From contig NZ_CP113797.1 of the NCBI RefSeq assembly GCF_026802175.1, forward strand, positions 4,379,026 through 4,443,025: DNA of 64,000 nucleotides, written 5' to 3'. The DNA comes from Thermocoleostomius sinensis A174 (lineage in GTDB: Bacteria; Cyanobacteriota; Cyanobacteriia; Elainellales; Elainellaceae). A program made the position numbers and the translations under genes. The notes under the pieces were generated by a model. That model ran no database searches. It saw only the letters and a list, made by a program, of their open reading frames with translations, and was not told the DNA's origin. The first letter of the stretch is position 1. Every line of letters starts with the position of its first letter. Shown piece after piece: positions 49,476 through 58,571 of the stretch.

Positions 49476-51311
49476 ATGGCGCTAATTGTTCAAAAGTATG
49501 GTGGTACGTCGGTTGGCTCGGTTGAGCGCATTCAGGCAGTCGCTCAACGGGTGAAGCGATCGGTTCAGGAGGGACACTCGATTGTGGTGGTGGTGTCGGC
49601 AATGGGCAAAACCACCGATGGGTTGGTGAAGCTGGCGTATGATATTTCGCCCAATCCTAACCGTCGCGAGATGGATATGCTGCTTTCGACAGGTGAGCAA
49701 GTGTCGATCGCGCTGCTCAGTATGGCGCTTCAGGAATTAGGACAACCCGCTATTTCTATGACTGGGGCACAGGTTGGCATTGTCACAGAAGCAGAGCATA
49801 CTCGCGCCCGGATTCTTAGCATTGACCCCGATCGGGTGCAGCGCCATTTGCAGGACGGCAAGGTGGTTGTGGTGGCTGGATTTCAAGGAATTTCTAGCCT
49901 GTCTGACTTAGAAATTACAACGCTAGGGCGAGGGGGGTCTGATACCTCGGCTGTGGCCCTAGCTGCCGCTCTCCAAGCCGATCTTTGCGAAATCTATACC
50001 GATGTTCCAGGGATTCTTACCACCGATCCGCGCCTCGTGCCCGATGCTCAGTTAATGACGGAAATTACCTCCGATGAAATGCTGGAGTTGGCTAGTTTGG
50101 GAGCTAAGGTGTTACATCCGCGTGCGGTGGAAATTGCCCGCAACTATGGTGTCACCCTGGTGGTGCGCTCTAGTTGGACGGATGATCCGGGCACAAAGGT
50201 AATCTCGCCAATCCCGCAACCGCGCCCGCTACAAGGCTTGGAAATTGCTCATCCAGTGGATGCGGTTGAATTTGATACCGATCAAGCCAAAGTGGCCATG
50301 CTACGAGTGCCCGATCGCCCCGGCATTGCCGCTCGCTTATTTGGTGAGATTGCTCTGCAAAACCTAGATGTGGATTTGATCATCCAATCGATTCACGAGG
50401 GCAACAGCAACGATATTGCCTTTACCGTCACGAAGAACTCGCTGAACCGAGCCGAAGCGGTGGCTGCCGCCATTGCCCCTGCTTTACGCAGTCATCCTCA
50501 TCCCAGTTCAGGTGAAGCTGAAGTCATGGTGGAACGGCAGATGGCTAAAGTCAGCATTGTGGGGGCTGGCATGATTGGTCGGCCTGGTGTTGCCGCTCAA
50601 ATGTTTGAAACCCTAGCGGAGGCTGGCGTTAACATTCAGATGATCTCTACCTCGGAGGTAAAAGTTAGTTGCGCGATCGATGCAGATGATTGCGATCGAG
50701 CCATTGCCGCTCTGTGCAACGTGTTTAACGTCAGCCGTTCACCTTTGCGGGGGCAACCGTCCACCGTTCCTGAACAATCCTCTCTCTCTCTCTCTCCTTC
50801 CATTCCTCCGGTTCGTGGAGCGGCCCTCGACCTCAAACAAGCCCGGCTTGCCATTCGTCATGTGCCCGATCGCCCTGGTATGGCCGCCCGAATCTTTCGC
50901 CACTTGGCCGATCGCAACATCAGTGTTGACATGATCATTCAGTCACAGCGCTGCCGTTTAGTTAATGGATTGACTACTCGCGATATTGCTTTCACAGTGG
51001 CTCAAGCGGATGCTAAAGATGCTCAGATGTTTCTTGAGCAAGCTGCTACTGAATTGGGCTATGGCGAAGTAGTAGTTGATGAGGCGATCGCCAAAGTCAG
51101 CATTGTTGGCACGGGTATGGTCGGTCGTCCTGGTATTGCGGCTCGTATGTTTGATGCGTTGGCCAAACAGCAAATAAATATTCAGATGATTGCGACCTCT
51201 GAAATCAAAGTCAGTTGCATTGTGGCAGAGGCAGACGGCGTTCGGGCGTTGCAAGCCGTTCACACCGCCTTTGATTTGTCAGGCAACGAACAGATTGTTG
51301 TGCCTGCATGA
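49476..51311 (+). CDS. lysC: Aspartate kinase with four ACT domains
   Basis: The enzyme phosphorylates aspartate in the first step toward Lys, Thr and Met. The kinase domain starts ALIVQKYGGTSVGSVERI and has STGEQVSIALL, TLGRGGSDTSAVALAAAL and a LGAKVLHPRAVE core. Two ACT pairs follow: the first at about residues 265-420 and its duplicate at about 450-605, each with a 'VRHVPDRPG/VRVPDRPG' and a 'KVSIVGxGMxGRPG' motif. Four ACT domains in a 611-residue chain are typical of cyanobacterial aspartate kinases and imply feedback control by lysine and/or threonine. A GGAGG site precedes the ATG. Confidence 0.95.
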   Translation: MALIVQKYGGTSVGSVERIQAVAQRVKRSVQEGHSIVVVVSAMGKTTDGLVKLAYDISPNPNRREMDMLLSTGEQVSIALLSMALQELGQPAISMTGAQVGIVTEAEHTRARILSIDPDRVQRHLQDGKVVVVAGFQGISSLSDLEITTLGRGGSDTSAVALAAALQADLCEIYTDVPGILTTDPRLVPDAQLMTEITSDEMLELASLGAKVLHPRAVEIARNYGVTLVVRSSWTDDPGTKVISPIPQPRPLQGLEIAHPVDAVEFDTDQAKVAMLRVPDRPGIAARLFGEIALQNLDVDLIIQSIHEGNSNDIAFTVTKNSLNRAEAVAAAIAPALRSHPHPSSGEAEVMVERQMAKVSIVGAGMIGRPGVAAQMFETLAEAGVNIQMISTSEVKVSCAIDADDCDRAIAALCNVFNVSRSPLRGQPSTVPEQSSLSLSPSIPPVRGAALDLKQARLAIRHVPDRPGMAARIFRHLADRNISVDMIIQSQRCRLVNGLTTRDIAFTVAQADAKDAQMFLEQAATELGYGEVVVDEAIAKVSIVGTGMVGRPGIAARMFDALAKQQINIQMIATSEIKVSCIVAEADGVRALQAVHTAFDLSGNEQIVVPA

Positions 51312-51345: not shown

Positions 51346-52140
51346 CTACATACCCGGAGTAAACCCGCCATCGATCAAAATTTCAGTTCCCGTGATTGAA
51401 GCAGCAAGGTCAGATACCAAAAATACTGTCATTGCGGCAATGTGATCGGGATCAACCAATCGCCCAAGCGGAATTGACTGTACTAACTCCGCCTTCGCGT
51501 CTTCCAAGCTAATGCCCCGTGCTTGAGAATTCTTCTCGGCGAGATGATTGGCGCGATCGGTGGCGGTAAAGCCAGGTGAAATGGCACTGATACGAATATT
51601 GTAGCGAGCGAGTTCTTTGGAAACGCCGCGTGTGAAGTTAAGCAAGGCGGCGTTTGACATACCGCCTGGGAGAAAGTTTGCACCTGGCGTTCGTCCAGCC
51701 GAGCCAATGATATTGACAATGCGCCCGTCCTGCCGCTCGATCATGCTTGGCACAACCGCTTTGACCAAGCGGATATAGCCCAGCGGTTTCAGATTCCAGG
51801 TGTCTAGATAGGCGCTGTCATCAAGATCTAGAAACGAACCCACCCGAGGCGCACCTGCATTGTTAATTAAAATATCAATGTGCCCGAACTGGTGCAACAC
51901 AGTAGACACAAGCTGCTCAGCGCTTTCGGTTTGGGTCAGATCGGCTGGAACGGCAATCACCTTAGCAGGCACACTGGCGCAAGCGTGAATCCTTTGTACG
52001 GCTTGCTCCAGTTTGCTTGGATCACGAGCCACGATCGCCAAATTCACCCCCTCTTGATAAAGTGCCTTGGCGCAGGCCAAACCGATACCTGCACTGCCTC
52101 CTGTGACAATTGCTACTTTGCCTGATAAATTAAAATCCAT
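51346..52140 (-). CDS. SDR-family protein without the usual catalytic Tyr/Lys
   Basis: The Rossmann motif VTGGSAGIGLACA and NNAGAP place this 264-residue protein among classical short-chain dehydrogenases. The typical YxxxK is replaced: after VNIIGSAGRTP the segment reads PGGMSNAALLNFTRGVSKEL, so Tyr and Lys are missing while Ser and Asn neighbours remain. FabG-like C-terminal features are kept (ISPGFTATDR, LIDGGFTPG). A subset of SDRs has this NAAL pattern; they may use other residues or act as binding proteins. It lies at the end of the minus-strand group following TauE and the PKS-like genes. Confidence 0.8.
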   Translation of the reverse strand: MDFNLSGKVAIVTGGSAGIGLACAKALYQEGVNLAIVARDPSKLEQAVQRIHACASVPAKVIAVPADLTQTESAEQLVSTVLHQFGHIDILINNAGAPRVGSFLDLDDSAYLDTWNLKPLGYIRLVKAVVPSMIERQDGRIVNIIGSAGRTPGANFLPGGMSNAALLNFTRGVSKELARYNIRISAISPGFTATDRANHLAEKNSQARGISLEDAKAELVQSIPLGRLVDPDHIAAMTVFLVSDLAASITGTEILIDGGFTPGM

Positions 52141-52194
52141 ACCTGTAGACCTTAAGTGAAAGCTTAAACTCGATCGACTGTAGTTGGAATAAGG

Positions 52195-53022
52195 TTAGCC
52201 CCCATAATAGAGATTCCAAGCCTTCCAAAAAAGATAGATAGACAGTGCTACTACCAATGTATTAAAGGCAAAACTGACCGTTTTGTCCGGCAGTTTGGGC
52301 AAGAAGCGAGTTCCCATTTGAGCACCTAAAAACCCACCAATACCCAGAAGCAGCCCTGGAAGCAGCAAAACATTTCCTCGGCTTGCGTGGCTAGCTGAAG
52401 CAGATAGGGATGTGATAATGTTAACGCCGACACTGGTTTGGATGGCCAGCTTGATACTTTCTTCCAAGATCAACATTTGCAGCGGCACCAGCAGCGTCCC
52501 CGATCCGCCGCCAACCATACCAGCAAAGAACCCAGCCACAGTTCCAGTGGCGATGCGCTTGACAACATTCGATCGAACCCAACCCGGCACGGTTTGTTCC
52601 GCGTACTTCTTAGCATAGATTAGCGAATCTTTCGCGTACTGTTTGGTGCGCTGAATCAGCTGCTTTCGCAATTTAACTAAATAAGTCAACAGCAGCATAA
52701 TCGAGCCGAAAAGGATGAGCAAAACATGGGGAGCAACTTGGCTCACGGCGTAAGCGCTAATCTGAGTCGTAATCAGAGCCGGCATTCCAATCAACACGAC
52801 TCGTTGGACGCTGAAATAGCCCATCCGAGAATTTTGGATACTGCCAGAGATGGAAATAATAGCAACGGCTAAACAACTCGTTCCTAGAGCTTGAATCGGC
52901 GTATAGTCCAATGCAATCAGTAGAGGTACGCACAGCACTCCACCGCCAGCCCCTAAAAGCCCCGCTAGAATGCCCGAAAGCAGACCTCCTACTGCCAGAA
53001 TTAATTCATGTGGTAGATTCAT
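52195..53022 (-). CDS. TauE/SafE family permease
   Basis: The 275-residue membrane protein has two homologous halves, each beginning with a Gly-rich signature: GLLSGILAGLLGAGGGVLCVPLL and GTVAGFFAGMVGGGSGTLLVPLQ (residues about 13 and 160). Around eight hydrophobic helices are present, separated by a charged loop near residues 115-150. Members export sulfite, sulfonates or other small organic anions. Its place inside the minus-strand group between the AMP ligase and SDR genes raises the possibility that it exports a product or by-product, but that is inference. Confidence 0.88.
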   Translation of the reverse strand: MNLPHELILAVGGLLSGILAGLLGAGGGVLCVPLLIALDYTPIQALGTSCLAVAIISISGSIQNSRMGYFSVQRVVLIGMPALITTQISAYAVSQVAPHVLLILFGSIMLLLTYLVKLRKQLIQRTKQYAKDSLIYAKKYAEQTVPGWVRSNVVKRIATGTVAGFFAGMVGGGSGTLLVPLQMLILEESIKLAIQTSVGVNIITSLSASASHASRGNVLLLPGLLLGIGGFLGAQMGTRFLPKLPDKTVSFAFNTLVVALSIYLFWKAWNLYYGG

Positions 53023-53236
53023 AGGTCAATGAAAAGGGATGCACCGAAATCATAAACAGGTAGAGTTTGAAGAATAACTGTTGAACGCAACAGAGATTCC
53101 AACGAACACAAGCGACATAAAGACTCAATTTAGATTTAACTCATCATCAATCTGTGAAACTCATCAGAAACACGCATTGTAGCTATTCATTGCTACTCAA
53201 AGTTAATCAACCCGAGTCTGCACCCCTTGTTCAATA

Positions 53237-54700
53237 TCAAGAAATACAATTCAAGCAAGATTTCATCAAAGCGGCTCGATCGACCTTGCCCGTTGCATTC
53301 TTAGGAATTACATCGACAAAATGCACCCGTTTTGGAACTTTGATCTGATCTAAGCGATCGCGTAATCGTTTTAGCGTTTCGGTTTCTATGCCATTGCCGT
53401 TATGAACAACAAAGGCATGGGGAACTTCACCGCGCTTGCGATCGGGCACAGCCAGCACTGCCGCTTCCAGTACCCACGGAATCTCGTACAATGCCGCTTC
53501 AATTTCGGCTGGGCTAATATTCACACCTCCTGAGATGATCAGATCTTTTTTGCGACCCTGCAAACGAATGAAGCCGTCTGCGGTGAGGGTGGCCAAGTCA
53601 CCTGTTTTCAACCATCCCGCCTCCCATACATTCGCTACACTTTCTCCGTAATAGCCCAGCATTTGCCATGGCGATTTCACCTGAAGTTCACCGATACCTT
53701 CCTGATTAGGATCAGCAATTCGAACGGAAGTTTGATCCAGGGGTAGTCCAACTGTGTCCCACAACGATTCATCAACCTGGTCAACTGCTAAGGTTGAAAC
53801 ACGCGGTCCGGCTTCGCTTAAACCATAGGTGACATAAATATGCTGATTCACGAAAAAATCTCTATATTGTTTAAGCTGCTTAATAGAAACTGGAGCCGAA
53901 CCGATCGAAATACGCTTTAGATTGGACGAGTGAAATAGCTCGTACTCAAAATTACGAACGATCGCATCTAAAACAGCGGGCACAAAAGATGTATAGCTCA
54001 CAGCATAGGTTTGAATCATGTGGCTGATTGTCTGTGGCAAGGAATCACGTCCAGCAATGAACGTCGCTTCTAACCCAAGGACTGAACCAATGTGAGCGGA
54101 CAGCGTAAACACATGATAGAAGGGGAGACAGCTTAGAATTCGATCGTTGTGGCTCAATCCTAGTGATTTGGCATGAGCTTTAGCGTTTTGCAACATTCGA
54201 GTAAACTGAAGCACAATCCGCTTAGGTAGGGCAGTTGTTCCCGACGTCGCACACATCAGCTTAGCATCGCCAGCAATGCGATTGATGGGTTCGAAATCAC
54301 TACCCCGCGTTACCACCGTCTGAATGAGATGAAGCGTAATCGGTTTGACTCTCGCATTCACAATCAAGTCAAAACTACTATCGTCGCAAATGGCCGCTTG
54401 GCAATTGAGTCCAATCGTTTTGCCCTGATATTCTTGTAACTTGCAGGTAGGCTGAATTGGATAAGGAATTTTGCCGGCTGCCATGATGCCAAGCAAAATT
54501 AAGACAAATTCGGCTGAGTTTGATAAAAGCATGGGCACAATGGTTTGATCGCCAGGAACCCAACGCCGGATTGAGTGAGCCACGATCGCAATGTAATCAG
54601 CCGATTGGGCATAGGTATATACGCCCGCATCATCTTCTACAAACGGTTTATGAGCGAGACGAGTTTTCCAATCTGTCAGCAAAATTCCATCTGTCATCAC
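53237..54700 (-). CDS. AMP-dependent acyl-activating enzyme (acyl-CoA/ACP ligase)
   Basis: The 487-residue protein carries the adenylation motifs: phosphate loop MCATSGTTALPKRI near residue 150, YGLSEAGPRVST, WLKTGDLATL, GRKKDLIISGGVNISPAEIE and the C-terminal catalytic lysine in PKNATGKVDR. It would activate a carboxylic acid as AMP ester and load it onto CoA or the carrier protein encoded upstream. The substrate may be an aryl or short-chain acid; this cannot be read by eye. The start is GTG 54700 or the ATG after it, with GAGG upstream. The CLF-like gene ends 91 bp upstream, so the same operon is likely. Confidence 0.85.
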   Translation of the reverse strand: MMTDGILLTDWKTRLAHKPFVEDDAGVYTYAQSADYIAIVAHSIRRWVPGDQTIVPMLLSNSAEFVLILLGIMAAGKIPYPIQPTCKLQEYQGKTIGLNCQAAICDDSSFDLIVNARVKPITLHLIQTVVTRGSDFEPINRIAGDAKLMCATSGTTALPKRIVLQFTRMLQNAKAHAKSLGLSHNDRILSCLPFYHVFTLSAHIGSVLGLEATFIAGRDSLPQTISHMIQTYAVSYTSFVPAVLDAIVRNFEYELFHSSNLKRISIGSAPVSIKQLKQYRDFFVNQHIYVTYGLSEAGPRVSTLAVDQVDESLWDTVGLPLDQTSVRIADPNQEGIGELQVKSPWQMLGYYGESVANVWEAGWLKTGDLATLTADGFIRLQGRKKDLIISGGVNISPAEIEAALYEIPWVLEAAVLAVPDRKRGEVPHAFVVHNGNGIETETLKRLRDRLDQIKVPKRVHFVDVIPKNATGKVDRAALMKSCLNCIS

Positions 54701-54791
54701 TGCTACCCCATTTTCCTCAAATCACATGCCATTTGACGTTGATCTCAATCTGTTTAGCAAGATTTTTTTGATCTAAAATTTACGGTTGACT

Positions 54792-55817
54792 TCATGTTTG
54801 TTGTAGTAGCAGCATACTGATACTGCCGTGTCGATCGGCCGAGCCAATGGCAACACGCTTAGGTATGTCTTTTGCCTGAGTGGGATCACTCAATCCAATC
54901 AATCCAATCATCTCCAAAAGTTTTAGTAGAGTCGTCGCGCCAAACACGTCGTAGGGGACAGTCTGCGTAGCAGCGGTTGTGTAAACATGGACGACATCTT
55001 CGCAACCAAGAATGATTGAGTCGATAGCCTGGGACTGGTAGCCAAGCGCAACGATAAACGCCTGCATAGCGTCCAGCGGAGTAGCCGTATCGTAAGCTTG
55101 CTGATATCCAATGACTTGATAGGAGCCTGGATGGATGGATGTTGATTGGCTGTCCTTTTCAATCAACAGCGCAACAGATCCTTCGATTGCGGCAATGTAA
55201 TCTGTACCGGCACAGGTTTTGTGTTTCTTCCGCAGAGAGCGGGCTTCGGATAGTCCTTCTCCAGCCGCAACAATATAGGGAGCCGGGCGATCGGACACCA
55301 GGACTTTCCGAACAGCATAAATCAACGCATCGATGCCACTCCGATAGCCAGAACTGACGACGGTGCTTTCTCCAAGTAGCTGAAACATTAGGCTGGCTTG
55401 CCCAGCAATTACATTACAACCGCGATTGGGATAAGCCTTCGGGTTTAGCGATCGGGGAGTCAACATGGCCTCGCGCACCACTTCATCTTGCGAGTGCAGC
55501 GCTCCATCCGAACCTACCACAAGACATACGTCGGTATTGGAATACCGCTCCAATAGTTGGGTATCATCCAGCAGAATTTTGATGGCAGCGGCAATTAATT
55601 TAGAGGATCGATCGTGAAACCGCAATCCCTTTTTACCGATATAGGTACTCAAATCAAATGACACTTGGGTAGAGCCGCCAAGATTGATAACCTGATTCGA
55701 TGAGGCCCTGGATACATTCGTTGCGATTAAAGCCCGATGACTAAACAAACAATCCGGTTTAATCGCGGCAAAGCCAGAGAGGATGACTTTGTTAGTCAGC
55801 TTTACTGAATACGACAC
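54792..55817 (-). CDS. Ketosynthase-like protein without catalytic residues (chain-length-factor-like)
   Basis: GTG 55817 (with GGAGG about 11 bases upstream) gives 341 residues and a 26-bp overlap with the upstream ketosynthase gene. The thiolase fold is recognisable: VILSGFAAIKPD at the start, NVIAGQASLMFQLLGESTVV and AGEGLSEARSL. The segment aligned to the active-site 'NACASG' of the neighbour is SSGYRSG, with Tyr for Cys, and the NAHGTGT and TKSxxGH His motifs are absent. This matches a KS-beta or chain-length factor that dimerises with the active KS. Such pairs are the hallmark of type II PKS, aryl polyene and related systems. A decarboxylase-like role is the other option. Confidence 0.75.
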   Translation of the reverse strand: MSYSVKLTNKVILSGFAAIKPDCLFSHRALIATNVSRASSNQVINLGGSTQVSFDLSTYIGKKGLRFHDRSSKLIAAAIKILLDDTQLLERYSNTDVCLVVGSDGALHSQDEVVREAMLTPRSLNPKAYPNRGCNVIAGQASLMFQLLGESTVVSSGYRSGIDALIYAVRKVLVSDRPAPYIVAAGEGLSEARSLRKKHKTCAGTDYIAAIEGSVALLIEKDSQSTSIHPGSYQVIGYQQAYDTATPLDAMQAFIVALGYQSQAIDSIILGCEDVVHVYTTAATQTVPYDVFGATTLLKLLEMIGLIGLSDPTQAKDIPKRVAIGSADRHGSISMLLLQQT

Positions 55818-57000
55818 TCGAATTAGATCCTCCAAAGCCAAAGGAATTGTTCATACAACGAACCACATCAGCAACCCTGGATTGATTTATCACGTAATCC
55901 AAATCACACTCGCAATCGAATTCTTCGTAATTCATTGTGGGAGGAACTTGTCCTTGGTCTAGAACACAACAACACCACACTGCTTCCAAGGCAGAAGCCG
56001 CGAGTAAGCCGTGCCCATGCAGCGATTTTGTACTACTCACCATCAACCGATCAGCATATTTGCCAAAGACCCGACGGATGCTGAGGGTTTCTAATCGATC
56101 GTTTTGAAACGTGCCAGTGCCGTGGGCATTGATGTACTGAATAGCATCTGGTGATAGCTGAGATTGTTCGAGTGCTCGCTGCATTGCCAATGCCATGCCC
56201 ACACCATCGGGATGAGGCGACATCATATCGTAAGCGTCGCAACTGGTACCGTAGCCCTCCATCACAATAGTGGGAGAGATGCCACGCGAGCGAGCATGAT
56301 CTTCGCGTTCTAAAACTAAGATTCCGGCCCCATCTCCTAGCATGACACCCGAGCGATTGGCCGAAAATGGACGACAGGTATCTTGGCTAATTCCCTGAAA
56401 CTGATGAAACCCAACTAGTGCCGATTTGAACATGTTGCAGCCTCCTCCCACGATCGCCACATCTACTTCACCACTGCGAATTAGATCGGCTCCGGCGGCA
56501 ATGGCATGGTTGCCCGATGCACAGGCATTGCTCAACACCAATCCTGGACCAGCGGCTCCAGTGCGCTGCCGAATGGCTCGCAGGCAATACTCTGGATCTG
56601 CTAAGGCGACAAGGTCCGGATCAACAACCGCCTCTGTGTCGGCCAAAGCGATCGCCAGTTCTTCTAAACTGTGTGATTCCAAGGTGGTGATGGCGATTCC
56701 TACGCGCAGTTGCCTGAGATCAGTGCCAAGGTTGGACTGGGCAAGGGCTTCCTCCATTGCCAGTAGGGTGAATTGAGTGGCATAGGCCTGGGGATGTAAA
56801 TCAGACCAGTCACTACTCCAGGTAATGCTTTCACCAATTTCAGCAATCTGTTTTTGAGTAAAATAGCTGTCACTCAAATCCAACCTTGTGGCAGCTTGAT
56901 AGATAGGTTGCCCTTGCAGTAATCCTGAGAACGATGTCCTTGCACCCGCACCATAGGGCGTAACCGCGCCGTATCCAGACACACAAACAGTTGTGCTCAT
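55792..57000 (-). CDS. Beta-ketoacyl-ACP synthase (KS-alpha, FabF-like)
   Basis: The 402-residue enzyme has all three catalytic residues: Cys in LSNACASGNHAI near residue 170, His in YINAHGTGTFQND and the second His in STKSLHGHGLLAAS. Other KS features are VCVSGYGAVTPYG, RPFSANRSGVMLGDGAGI and the C-terminal NNSFGFGGSNSSVVF. It should condense a malonyl-ACP unit with an acyl chain. It is more diverged from FabF than a housekeeping enzyme would be. Overlap with the CLF-like gene suggests a heterodimer. The ACP gene lies 80 bp upstream. Confidence 0.9.
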   Translation of the reverse strand: MSTTVCVSGYGAVTPYGAGARTSFSGLLQGQPIYQAATRLDLSDSYFTQKQIAEIGESITWSSDWSDLHPQAYATQFTLLAMEEALAQSNLGTDLRQLRVGIAITTLESHSLEELAIALADTEAVVDPDLVALADPEYCLRAIRQRTGAAGPGLVLSNACASGNHAIAAGADLIRSGEVDVAIVGGGCNMFKSALVGFHQFQGISQDTCRPFSANRSGVMLGDGAGILVLEREDHARSRGISPTIVMEGYGTSCDAYDMMSPHPDGVGMALAMQRALEQSQLSPDAIQYINAHGTGTFQNDRLETLSIRRVFGKYADRLMVSSTKSLHGHGLLAASALEAVWCCCVLDQGQVPPTMNYEEFDCECDLDYVINQSRVADVVRCMNNSFGFGGSNSSVVFSKAD

Positions 57001-57080
57001 GGCAATCGTCCTTCATGACAGCAAATAATAACAGCAGACCGCGATCGCGTGGATTCACTCCGTCATTTTCTTTGATCAAA

Positions 57081-57338
57081 CTAGCCAACCGAAACTTGCG
57101 CGGTTGTGGTTGTGTGTTCAGCAATCCAGCGCGCTAAAGAATCAACCGTTGTGGCGTTAGAGAAAACTTCAATGGGCACAGCTACTCCAAATTTTTTCTC
57201 GATGGCTACGGTTAGCTCCACAAAATCGATCGACGCCATACCCAGATCGCTAACCAGATCAGCCTGATCATCAATCGGTTCATCCCATTCCATGATGTCG
57301 GCAATTGTACCTTTCAATGTTTCAGCAATAGGATTCAT
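57081..57338 (-). CDS. Acyl carrier protein
   Basis: The 85-residue protein has the four-helix ACP pattern: TLKGTIADIMEW, then DQADLVSDLGMASIDFVEL, with the phosphopantetheine serine in LGMASID (Ala replaces the usual Asp before it), and VAIEKKFGVAVPIEVFS. It would carry intermediates of the neighbouring ketosynthase. GAGGG precedes the ATG by about 10 bases. It is separated from the hotdog gene by only 32 bp. It is distinct from a housekeeping AcpP by that motif change and its context. Confidence 0.85.
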   Translation of the reverse strand: MNPIAETLKGTIADIMEWDEPIDDQADLVSDLGMASIDFVELTVAIEKKFGVAVPIEVFSNATTVDSLARWIAEHTTTTAQVSVG

Positions 57339-57370
57339 GATTTAGATCCCTCAATCATCATTTAGATAAC

Positions 57371-57820
57371 TTAAGTTTGCGATTTCTGTACCATCACTTC
57401 CGCTCTAGGCTTTGATGACAGAGAGCCGGAAGCCTTGGCATAGGCTTCACCATTTGAATTCACGCATACTCCTTCAAACAGGAGCACGTTCTGAACGAAA
57501 CGCTCGCACGTCAGAGTGAATACTACTTGATATCCCTCAAAGATAGGTTTGAGGAATTTAATCTTGATGCCACCGGCAAAGAACAAACTCATTTGCGGAT
57601 CAAAGTGTCGATCGTGCTCGTAAAACATCAGCATCGCACCTTGAAAAAAACATTGAATAATACTGACTCCTGGGAAATGATCATTGAGGAGCCACTCGGG
57701 GTTATTAACCTCCACACTGTAAGCAACCGTACCTGGATCTGCGGTAACATCGCTCACAAAAATTTCTTTCGCGAACGGACGCAGCTTTGCTTCCACATCG
57801 CTTTGTGTAATCACTTGCAA
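57371..57820 (-). CDS. Hotdog-fold protein, FabZ/FabA-like but missing the acidic residue
   Basis: The start is uncertain; TTG 57820 with GAGGT upstream gives 149 residues, though the frame is open to 57883. The core WLLNDHFPGVSIIQCFFQGAML aligns with the FabZ GHFPGxPIMPGVLxxEA segment: the catalytic His is kept, but the position of Glu is Ala and the PGV turn is lost. Later stretches IKIKFLKPIFEGYQVVFTLT match the beta-sheet of hotdog dehydratases. It may be a dehydratase using other residues, a thioesterase or a non-catalytic binding domain. It is the first gene of the ACP/KS group. Confidence 0.7.
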   Translation of the reverse strand: MQVITQSDVEAKLRPFAKEIFVSDVTADPGTVAYSVEVNNPEWLLNDHFPGVSIIQCFFQGAMLMFYEHDRHFDPQMSLFFAGGIKIKFLKPIFEGYQVVFTLTCERFVQNVLLFEGVCVNSNGEAYAKASGSLSSKPRAEVMVQKSQT

Positions 57821-57919
57821 TCGAAATTTACCTCGTAAGGATAACTGAATAAACAGATTCCAGCACGACAATGGACGGATCAAGGAGATCCTAAATTACC
57901 GAGTCGCAACATCGCGTTC

Positions 57920-58034
57920 ACTTAAGAATCTTAAGTAATTGGGAACAAAGCTGACTAAAATCTTGTACGTTTCAATCTAACCGATGGATGTCTGTTTGCC
58001 ATCCATATCTGTCATTTTATGAGAACATTCTCAT
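57920..58034. promoter_or_regulatory. Three perfect inverted repeats upstream of the PKS-like operon
   Basis: ACTTAAG-aat-CTTAAGT at 57920-57936, ATGGATG-N9-CATCCAT at 57984-58006 and ATGAGAA-ca-TTCTCAT at 58019-58034 all have perfect 7-bp arms. They lie within 100-215 bp of the likely hotdog start. They are candidates for regulator binding; no regulator gene is adjacent. Confidence 0.5.
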
Positions 58035-58571
58035 GATTCAGAGCCAAAGCAGTTTAACAGAATCATCGAGTCGTAGATTCTGATTCATTTGCTCGATAAA
58101 GAGTTGAATTCTGACACAATTGCTGTTCACAGGCAGAGCACTCCCATAAAATTAGGCTGACGCAGCCGACATCATCACAGAAAACACAGCAACTAGCCCG
58201 TTGCTTACAACCTAGCCATCAAACCGCTTGACTGTTAAGGGCTAACACAGCAAAACTACCGACGATTCGATCGCCAAGTTGTTAAAAAATAAAGCAAAAG
58301 ATAGTGAAAACCAGACATACCAAGCACCTAATCAATCTTTCGCGTTATTTCCTAACAAACCCGGCGCTCCTAACCTTCATTTTTATACCGAACTGCAAAA
58401 GCTTTGTAAAGTTAATTGTGAACTTTATAGGAAATTTATAAACGTAGGCAGTTTCCTGATGAAAGCTGGATAAAGTCATGGCTCTCATCCTTACTTTGAA
58501 TGAGAGCCATTGTCAGTGATTAAGATCCTAGCCTATACGATTCTAATCTATGCAGGTATTGCTTGATACAG
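58035..58571. other. Intergenic region with an 11-bp hairpin after the CheW gene
   Basis: ATGGCTCTCAT (58478-58488) and ATGAGAGCCAT (58500-58510) form a perfect 11-bp stem, 62 bp past the CheW stop. It has no T run, so it is either a pause/attenuation structure or a processing site. The 64-codon plus-strand frame at 58279-58473 shows no protein-like motif or ribosome-binding site. The rest has nothing I can support. Confidence 0.45.

What the first reader, a model, noticed from the sequence alone, without database searches (positions are those of the whole stretch)
51346..57820. Compact uncharacterised type II PKS/FAS-like locus
Seen: on one strand, hotdog protein, ACP, intact ketosynthase, catalytically dead ketosynthase partner, AMP ligase, TauE-type permease and SDR, with overlaps or short spacers among the first five. 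Known: an active KS paired with an inactive KS-beta/CLF plus ACP, dehydratase and ligase is the core of type II PKS, aryl polyene and ladderane-type systems. Inference: this may make a small polyene, aryl or fatty product. No phosphopantetheinyl transferase, aromatase or acyltransferase is visible.
Basis: partly seen in the sequence, partly recalled or inferred. Interest (0 to 1): 0.78.

Follow-up and report, generated by a model that had tools for sequence, protein, structure and literature searches.

The report
Orphan small-acid assembly line (type II PKS)
A probably cyanobacterial genome carries a compact five-gene set that looks able to load a small acid onto a carrier protein and lengthen it with a paired active/inactive ketosynthase, a known kind of machine, but its paired partner and its hotdog enzyme have no close relative in anything searched, so its product cannot yet be predicted.

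Summary
On the minus strand lie a hotdog protein, ACP, intact ketosynthase (C160/H293/H330), a catalytically dead, unusually compact KS partner (CLF) and an adenylate ligase, with short gaps or an overlap. A TauE permease (214 bp further on) and an atypical SDR follow, but probably belong to another unit. The genome has a separate acpP-fabF, so this is not housekeeping FAS. The CLF has the compact build of actinobacterial 'highly reducing' type II PKS partners, not of anammox/ladderane CLFs. The hotdog keeps the FabZ catalytic His but has Gln for the catalytic Glu and lacks the six-residue loop between them, so an ordinary dehydratase role is doubtful. The gene set matches cispentacin/coronafacic-acid 'CFA-type' clusters, but hotdog and KS show no specific kinship to the curated cispentacin models. 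No ortholog of CLF or hotdog was found in 390 same-class genomes, nor of the CLF in a pattern scan of about 85,000 species. Best reading: an orphan, ligase-primed, short-chain type II PKS that borrows FabD, FabG and the PPTase from the cell. A new variant of a known kind; product undetermined.

The parts
57371..57820 (-). hotdog-fold protein (149 aa), FabZ-like fold, His kept, catalytic Glu replaced by Gln, six-residue loop missing
57081..57338 (-). acyl carrier protein (85 aa), Ser in GMASID
   Evidence: Pfam PF00550 53.8 bits; distinct from acpP
55792..57000 (-). ketosynthase (KS-alpha), Cys160, His293, Lys325, His330 present
54792..55817 (-). chain-length-factor-like KS-beta (341 aa from GTG; ORF to 55841), compact type, no catalytic Cys or His
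53237..54700 (-). adenylate-forming acid ligase (ANL family), motifs intact by eye
   Evidence: PF00501 and PF13193, NCBIfam, PDB MenE and feruloyl-CoA ligases
52195..53022 (-). TauE/SafE-type permease; membership uncertain (214-bp gap)
   Evidence: PF01925 148 bits; gap
51346..52140 (-). SDR-fold protein without YxxxK motif; membership doubtful
   Evidence: only close relative in the family (64%) lies in a locus with a sulfatase-like gene and no PKS genes
57821..58571 (-). 751-bp intergenic leader upstream of the operon; no Rfam RNA

Best explanation
A specialised type II PKS operon that makes a short acyl product. The ligase adenylates an unidentified carboxylic acid and loads it on the operon's ACP. 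The cell's FabD supplies malonyl-ACP, and the genome's single PPTase makes holo-ACP. The KS, in a heterodimer with the compact CLF, condenses starter and malonyl once or a few times in a pocket bounded by the CLF. Beta-keto processing and release borrow FAS enzymes such as FabG. The hotdog acts on the ACP-bound product, but probably not as an ordinary dehydratase (isomerase, cyclase/decarboxylase or non-catalytic partner). Shown: gene set, order, KS residues present, dead compact CLF, hotdog fold and residue changes, separate housekeeping ACP, FabF and PPTase. Inferred: heterodimer, loading onto ACP, number of rounds, borrowing of FAS enzymes, role of the hotdog.
For: Gene set and coupling. 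KS catalytic residues present and all replaced in the CLF. The CLF shares its compact build with Streptomyces plasmid CLFs encoded beside NRPS genes (middle segment 44 residues against 44-45; anammox 60; tail 26 against 41-42 and 64-65); its best sequence matches are one of these and the anammox CLFs (75 and 71 bits), and IgaCLF 6kxd_B is hit at 2e-6. KS outside the FabF clade, support 99/98, and outside same-class FabFs. Separate acpP-fabF and PPTase. Precedent: ava/cma clusters (ligase, ACPs, KS, CLF) make avenalumic or p-coumaric acid, cma with a dehydratase, and in part a ketoreductase, from FAS (PMC10777205).
Against: The KS is a long, unplaced branch (1.99 changes per site), not inside the branch of the two Streptomyces plasmid KSs. 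No KR, TE or tailoring gene is in the operon. Ava/cma have two ACPs and no hotdog is listed in their gene table; here there is one ACP. No ortholog exists to show selection or conserved gene order.
Confidence: 0.55

Rival explanations
1. CFA-type/cispentacin-like system: the ligase loads 2-oxoglutarate, KS plus a cyclisation factor add one C2 unit and close a five-membered ring, and the hotdog decarboxylates it.
For: The five core genes (ACP, hotdog, KS, inactive partner, ligase) are exactly the CFA-type set of Hibi 2023 (PMC10698177). No KR is needed. The hotdog keeps the His but has an altered active site. The ligase matches the AmcH model over nearly its full length, 177.6 bits, as eighth-best NCBIfam model.
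Against: The hotdog scores 30 bits on the AmcE model (cut-off 140) while the ordinary Bacillales FabZ listed score 67-86. The KS scores 200 bits on AmcF (cut-off 325), no more than an anammox KS (237) or Streptomyces plasmid KSs (203-204). Ligase 177.6 and ACP 32 are below their cut-offs of 370 and 80. AmcG itself could not be compared. No AmcC or AmcD homolog is in the operon.
Confidence: 0.2
2. Modified fatty-acid or ladderane-type assembly like the anammox ACP-FabZ-FabF-FabF2 clusters.
For: Best PDB match of both KS and CLF is 9s5h chains B and C; chain B is 86-91% identical to three of the four anammox-type KSs fetched. Top loci of the KS scan include anammox bacteria.
Against: KS identity is 37-38% to anammox KS, as to many FabFs. 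Anammox CLFs are full length (60/64-65 segments), the window CLF is not. No radical SAM or desaturase gene; a ligase instead.
Confidence: 0.08
3. Salicylate- or aryl-primed aromatic type II PKS like that of the cyanobacterium Gloeocapsa PCC 7428.
For: KS-CLF, ACP and a CoA ligase occur together there (PMC11744666). The ligase resembles MenE and aryl ligases.
Against: No aromatase or cyclase is visible. The CLF matches compact reducing-type partners. The Gloeocapsa proteins were not compared here.
Confidence: 0.07
4. A relic or inactive locus.
For: No orthologs in relatives; hotdog and CLF highly diverged.
Against: All ORFs intact, Shine-Dalgarno-like sites, KS catalytic residues kept, codon usage correlates 0.92 with neighbouring genes and HIP1 density equals the window's.
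Confidence: 0.1

Closest known systems
Highly reducing type II PKS with aryl-ACP ligase (avenalumic acid ava / p-coumaric acid cma, actinomycetes)
   Same: ligase + ACP + KS + CLF core; CLF of compact reducing-type build; KR, DH or TE may come from FAS
   Different: two ACPs, diazotisation genes and AvaB/CmaB there; here one ACP and a hotdog; ava/cma sequences were not compared, and the KS does not group with the Streptomyces plasmid KSs used as stand-ins
Cispentacin/coronafacic-acid KS-CYF systems (AmcB,E,F,G,H / Cfa1-5)
   Same: same five gene types; hotdog with retained His and altered active site; no KR in the cluster
   Different: hotdog and KS score no better on curated AmcE and AmcF models than unrelated FabZ and KS; no AmcC or AmcD
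Anammox (ladderane-associated) ACP-FabZ-FabF-noncanonical FabF cluster, PDB 9s5h by sequence
   Same: closest solved KS and CLF sequences; ACP, hotdog, KS and KS-beta adjacent
   Different: full-length CLF, ordinary FabZ motif (HFPDFAIMPGVLIIE), desaturase and radical SAM genes, no ligase next to it in the loci read
Gloeocapsa sp. [quoted passage not shown]
   Same: a cyanobacterial ACP, KS-CLF and CoA-ligase set
   Different: an aromatic PKS with its own PPTase; proteins not compared here

Membership tests
Type II PKS (KS-CLF type) | active-type KS plus catalytically inactive KS-beta encoded side by side | tested here: met
Type II PKS (KS-CLF type) | free-standing ACP in the same operon | tested here: met
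Type II PKS (KS-CLF type) | KS-CLF heterodimer extending with malonyl-ACP | not testable with these tools
   needs expression; the single-sequence CLF model failed (pLDDT 32)
Highly reducing type II PKS | compact CLF lacking the PFDxxRxG segment and C-terminal portion | tested here: met
   the compact reference CLFs come from two Streptomyces plasmids and IgaCLF
Highly reducing type II PKS | KS groups with highly reducing KSs | tested here: inconclusive
   long unplaced branch; references were two Streptomyces plasmid KSs, not characterised enzymes
Highly reducing type II PKS | KR and active DH in the cluster | tested here: not met
   no KR in the core operon; SDR lacks YxxxK and is probably unrelated; hotdog Glu replaced by Gln; the cma precedent borrows a DH from FAS
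CFA/cispentacin KS-CYF | AmcE-type hotdog above model cut-off | tested here: not met
   30 bits against cut-off 140; ordinary FabZ score higher
CFA/cispentacin KS-CYF | AmcF-type KS above model cut-off | tested here: not met
   200 bits against 325; other KSs score 203-237
CFA/cispentacin KS-CYF | AmcH-type 2-oxoglutaryl-ACP ligase above model cut-off | tested here: not met
   177.6 bits against cut-off 370; substrate itself not testable
CFA/cispentacin KS-CYF | AmcG-type cyclisation factor | not tested
   no AmcG sequence or model was reached
Anammox/ladderane cluster | full-length KS-beta with desaturase and radical SAM genes | tested here: not met
Housekeeping FAS | only fabF/acpP of the genome | tested here: not met
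   acpP-fabF at G000 3963010-3964143
FabZ dehydratase | catalytic His and Glu | tested here: not met
   His present, Glu aligns with Gln, six-residue loop missing

The most novel reading that the evidence does not exclude
A new type II PKS subclass in which a ligase-loaded acid is extended on a KS-compact-CLF pair and then converted by a non-dehydratase hotdog enzyme (for example cyclisation or decarboxylation), reached independently of the cispentacin lineage and giving a new small acid.
Probability: 0.25. Interest if true: 0.65.

Novelty: new variant of a known kind. Interest (0 to 1): 0.45.

Why it matters
Compact KS-CLF systems primed by a ligase are a small, recently recognised group with unusual chemistry (polyenes, cinnamoyl acids, cyclopentanoids). 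Here is one in a probable cyanobacterium with only five core genes, a hotdog enzyme with an altered active site, and no close relative found. It is small enough to be rebuilt from five proteins plus FAS enzymes, which makes the question of what the CLF partner and the hotdog contribute directly testable.

Tried and rejected
Housekeeping FAS: rejected. Membership of the cispentacin family: its curated models are not met; ordinary FabZ and KS controls score as well or better. Anammox-type: CLF build differs. Search for orthologs: CLF in 36 family/order and 390 class genomes and in genome contigs, KS and hotdog in the class, and CLF, KS, hotdog and ligase in the plasmid collection; none close. 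The single-sequence CLF model was useless (pLDDT 32). The hotdog model was built on an alignment of FabZ sequences, so its FabZ-like fold is partly imposed. Plasmid neighbourhoods of similar ligases and ketosynthases gave no similar cluster where annotated. Rfam: nothing. Promoter and terminator scans: at shuffle level. Ligase controls for the AmcH model were inconclusive because only the best 25 models are listed. AmcF/G/H sequences could not be fetched; a Bacillales search found no AmcE above cut-off.

Full report
What is there. The window is bases 4,379,026-4,443,025 of a 5.81-Mb one-contig genome. The minus strand carries hotdog (57371-57820), ACP (57081-57338), KS (55792-57000), CLF (54792-55817), ligase (53237-54700), TauE (52195-53022) and SDR (51346-52140), with gaps of 32, 80, -26, 91, 214 and 54 bp. 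Start sites read from the sequence: TTG 57820 behind ACGAGG, and GTG 55817 behind GGAGG, which overlaps the KS stop and suggests translational coupling.

Not housekeeping. The genome has acpP next to fabF at 3,963,010-3,964,143 and one PPTase at 2,945,727. The tree puts the window KS outside the FabF clade (99/98) and outside the same-class FabFs (100/100), on a branch of 1.99 changes per site whose exact place is unsure.

The KS and its partner. The KS has Cys160, His293, Lys325 and His330; in the CLF the corresponding positions are Tyr and other non-catalytic residues. Among solved structures both match 9s5h best (KS 280 bits, CLF 55 bits). The printed part of 9s5h chain B is 86-91% identical to three of the four anammox-type KSs fetched, so I take 9s5h to be an anammox pair; its title was not read. 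KS identity to anammox KSs (37-38%) is no higher than to several FabFs (up to 40%). The CLF is compact: the middle segment is 44 residues, as in the two Streptomyces plasmid CLFs encoded beside NRPS genes (44-45), against 60 in anammox CLFs; the tail is 26 against 41-42 and 64-65. IgaCLF of the ishigamide system (6kxd_B; the link to ishigamide is from memory) is the second solved structure it hits. The Streptomyces clusters are taken as reducing-type from their gene content; they are not characterised.

The hotdog. No Pfam model matches. A FabZ HMM aligns it at 31 bits and shows the catalytic His kept, Gln in place of the catalytic Glu, and a six-residue loop missing between them; a second alignment agrees. 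The predicted fold is FabZ-like (mean pLDDT 84, Z 18 to E. coli FabZ), with the caveat that the alignment behind the model was made of FabZ sequences and that the loop itself has low confidence. A plain dehydratase role is therefore doubtful.

The ligase. AMP-binding with C-terminal domain, best PDB relatives MenE and feruloyl-CoA ligases, best NCBIfam models PRK06187 and menE, both below cut-off. Its substrate cannot be read from this.

Comparison with the closest gene sets. Five gene types (ACP, hotdog, KS, inactive partner, ligase) are the CFA-type set described for cispentacin and coronafacic acid (PMC10698177). Controls speak against membership: the hotdog scores 30 bits on the AmcE model while the listed ordinary Bacillales FabZs score 67-86, none above the cut-off of 140; the KS scores 200 bits on AmcF, while an anammox KS scores 237 and the Streptomyces plasmid KSs 203-204. 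AmcG could not be compared. This lowers 'it is a member', not 'it may work like one'. The ava/cma systems (PMC10777205) show that ligase, ACP, KS and CLF can work with a dehydratase, and partly a ketoreductase, from FAS, which is the precedent I rely on for the best explanation. A type II PKS as such is not new for cyanobacteria: Gloeocapsa PCC 7428 has one (PMC11744666), and a catalogue lists KS-CLF pairs in the phylum (PMC10132072).

Distribution. Neither CLF nor hotdog has an ortholog in 390 same-class genomes; one weak CLF hit (27%, E 5e-4) is at general KS level. The KS's best matches in the class are 231 bits, 38%, FabF level. A pattern scan of about 85,000 species with the CLF found nothing; this reaches close relatives only. 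In seven relatives the lysC neighbourhood lacks all core genes, so the locus is a sporadic presence. Its codon usage (correlation 0.92 with neighbours) and HIP1 density (0.46 per kb against 0.45) look native, so a recent import from a distant host is unlikely.

TauE and SDR. The SDR lacks the YxxxK motif (GGMSN in its place by my reading). Its only close relative in the family (64%, G016) sits between an amidase-like and a sulfatase-modifying-factor-like gene, with a sulfatase-like gene, a sulfonate-type binding protein and a TauE-like permease nearby, and no PKS genes (names by my reading of the sequences). Together with the 214-bp gap this suggests that TauE and SDR are a neighbouring unit.

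Verdict. An intact, orphan, compact type II PKS-like operon; a new variant of a known kind; function inferred, product unknown.

Noticed in passing
window 51346-52140: SDR with the catalytic Tyr-x3-Lys replaced; a 64% relative in G016 (L131 8609-9409) lies among organosulfur-type genes (sulfatase-like, LLM monooxygenase-like, binding protein).
   Followed up: partly
window 57081-57338: The ACP's serine motif reads GMASID instead of the usual DSL, which may bear on recognition by the PPTase or ligase.
   Followed up: no
window 57821-58571: 751-bp non-coding stretch upstream of the operon, low GC (about 0.41-0.44), no Rfam family.
   Followed up: partly
window 49476-51311: Aspartate kinase with four ACT repeats, conserved at 77-87% in 33 of 36 family genomes, directly convergent with the SDR.
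   Followed up: partly
L061 8106-12501 and L041 256-4651: Planctomycete loci pair a KS and KS-beta with an AcpS-like and a radical-SAM-like gene; an anammox-like cluster outside the fetched anammox genomes.
   Followed up: no
L066 1308-7895: Omnitrophota locus with KS-beta, SDR, ACP, KS and a desaturase-like gene, anammox-like in content.
   Followed up: no
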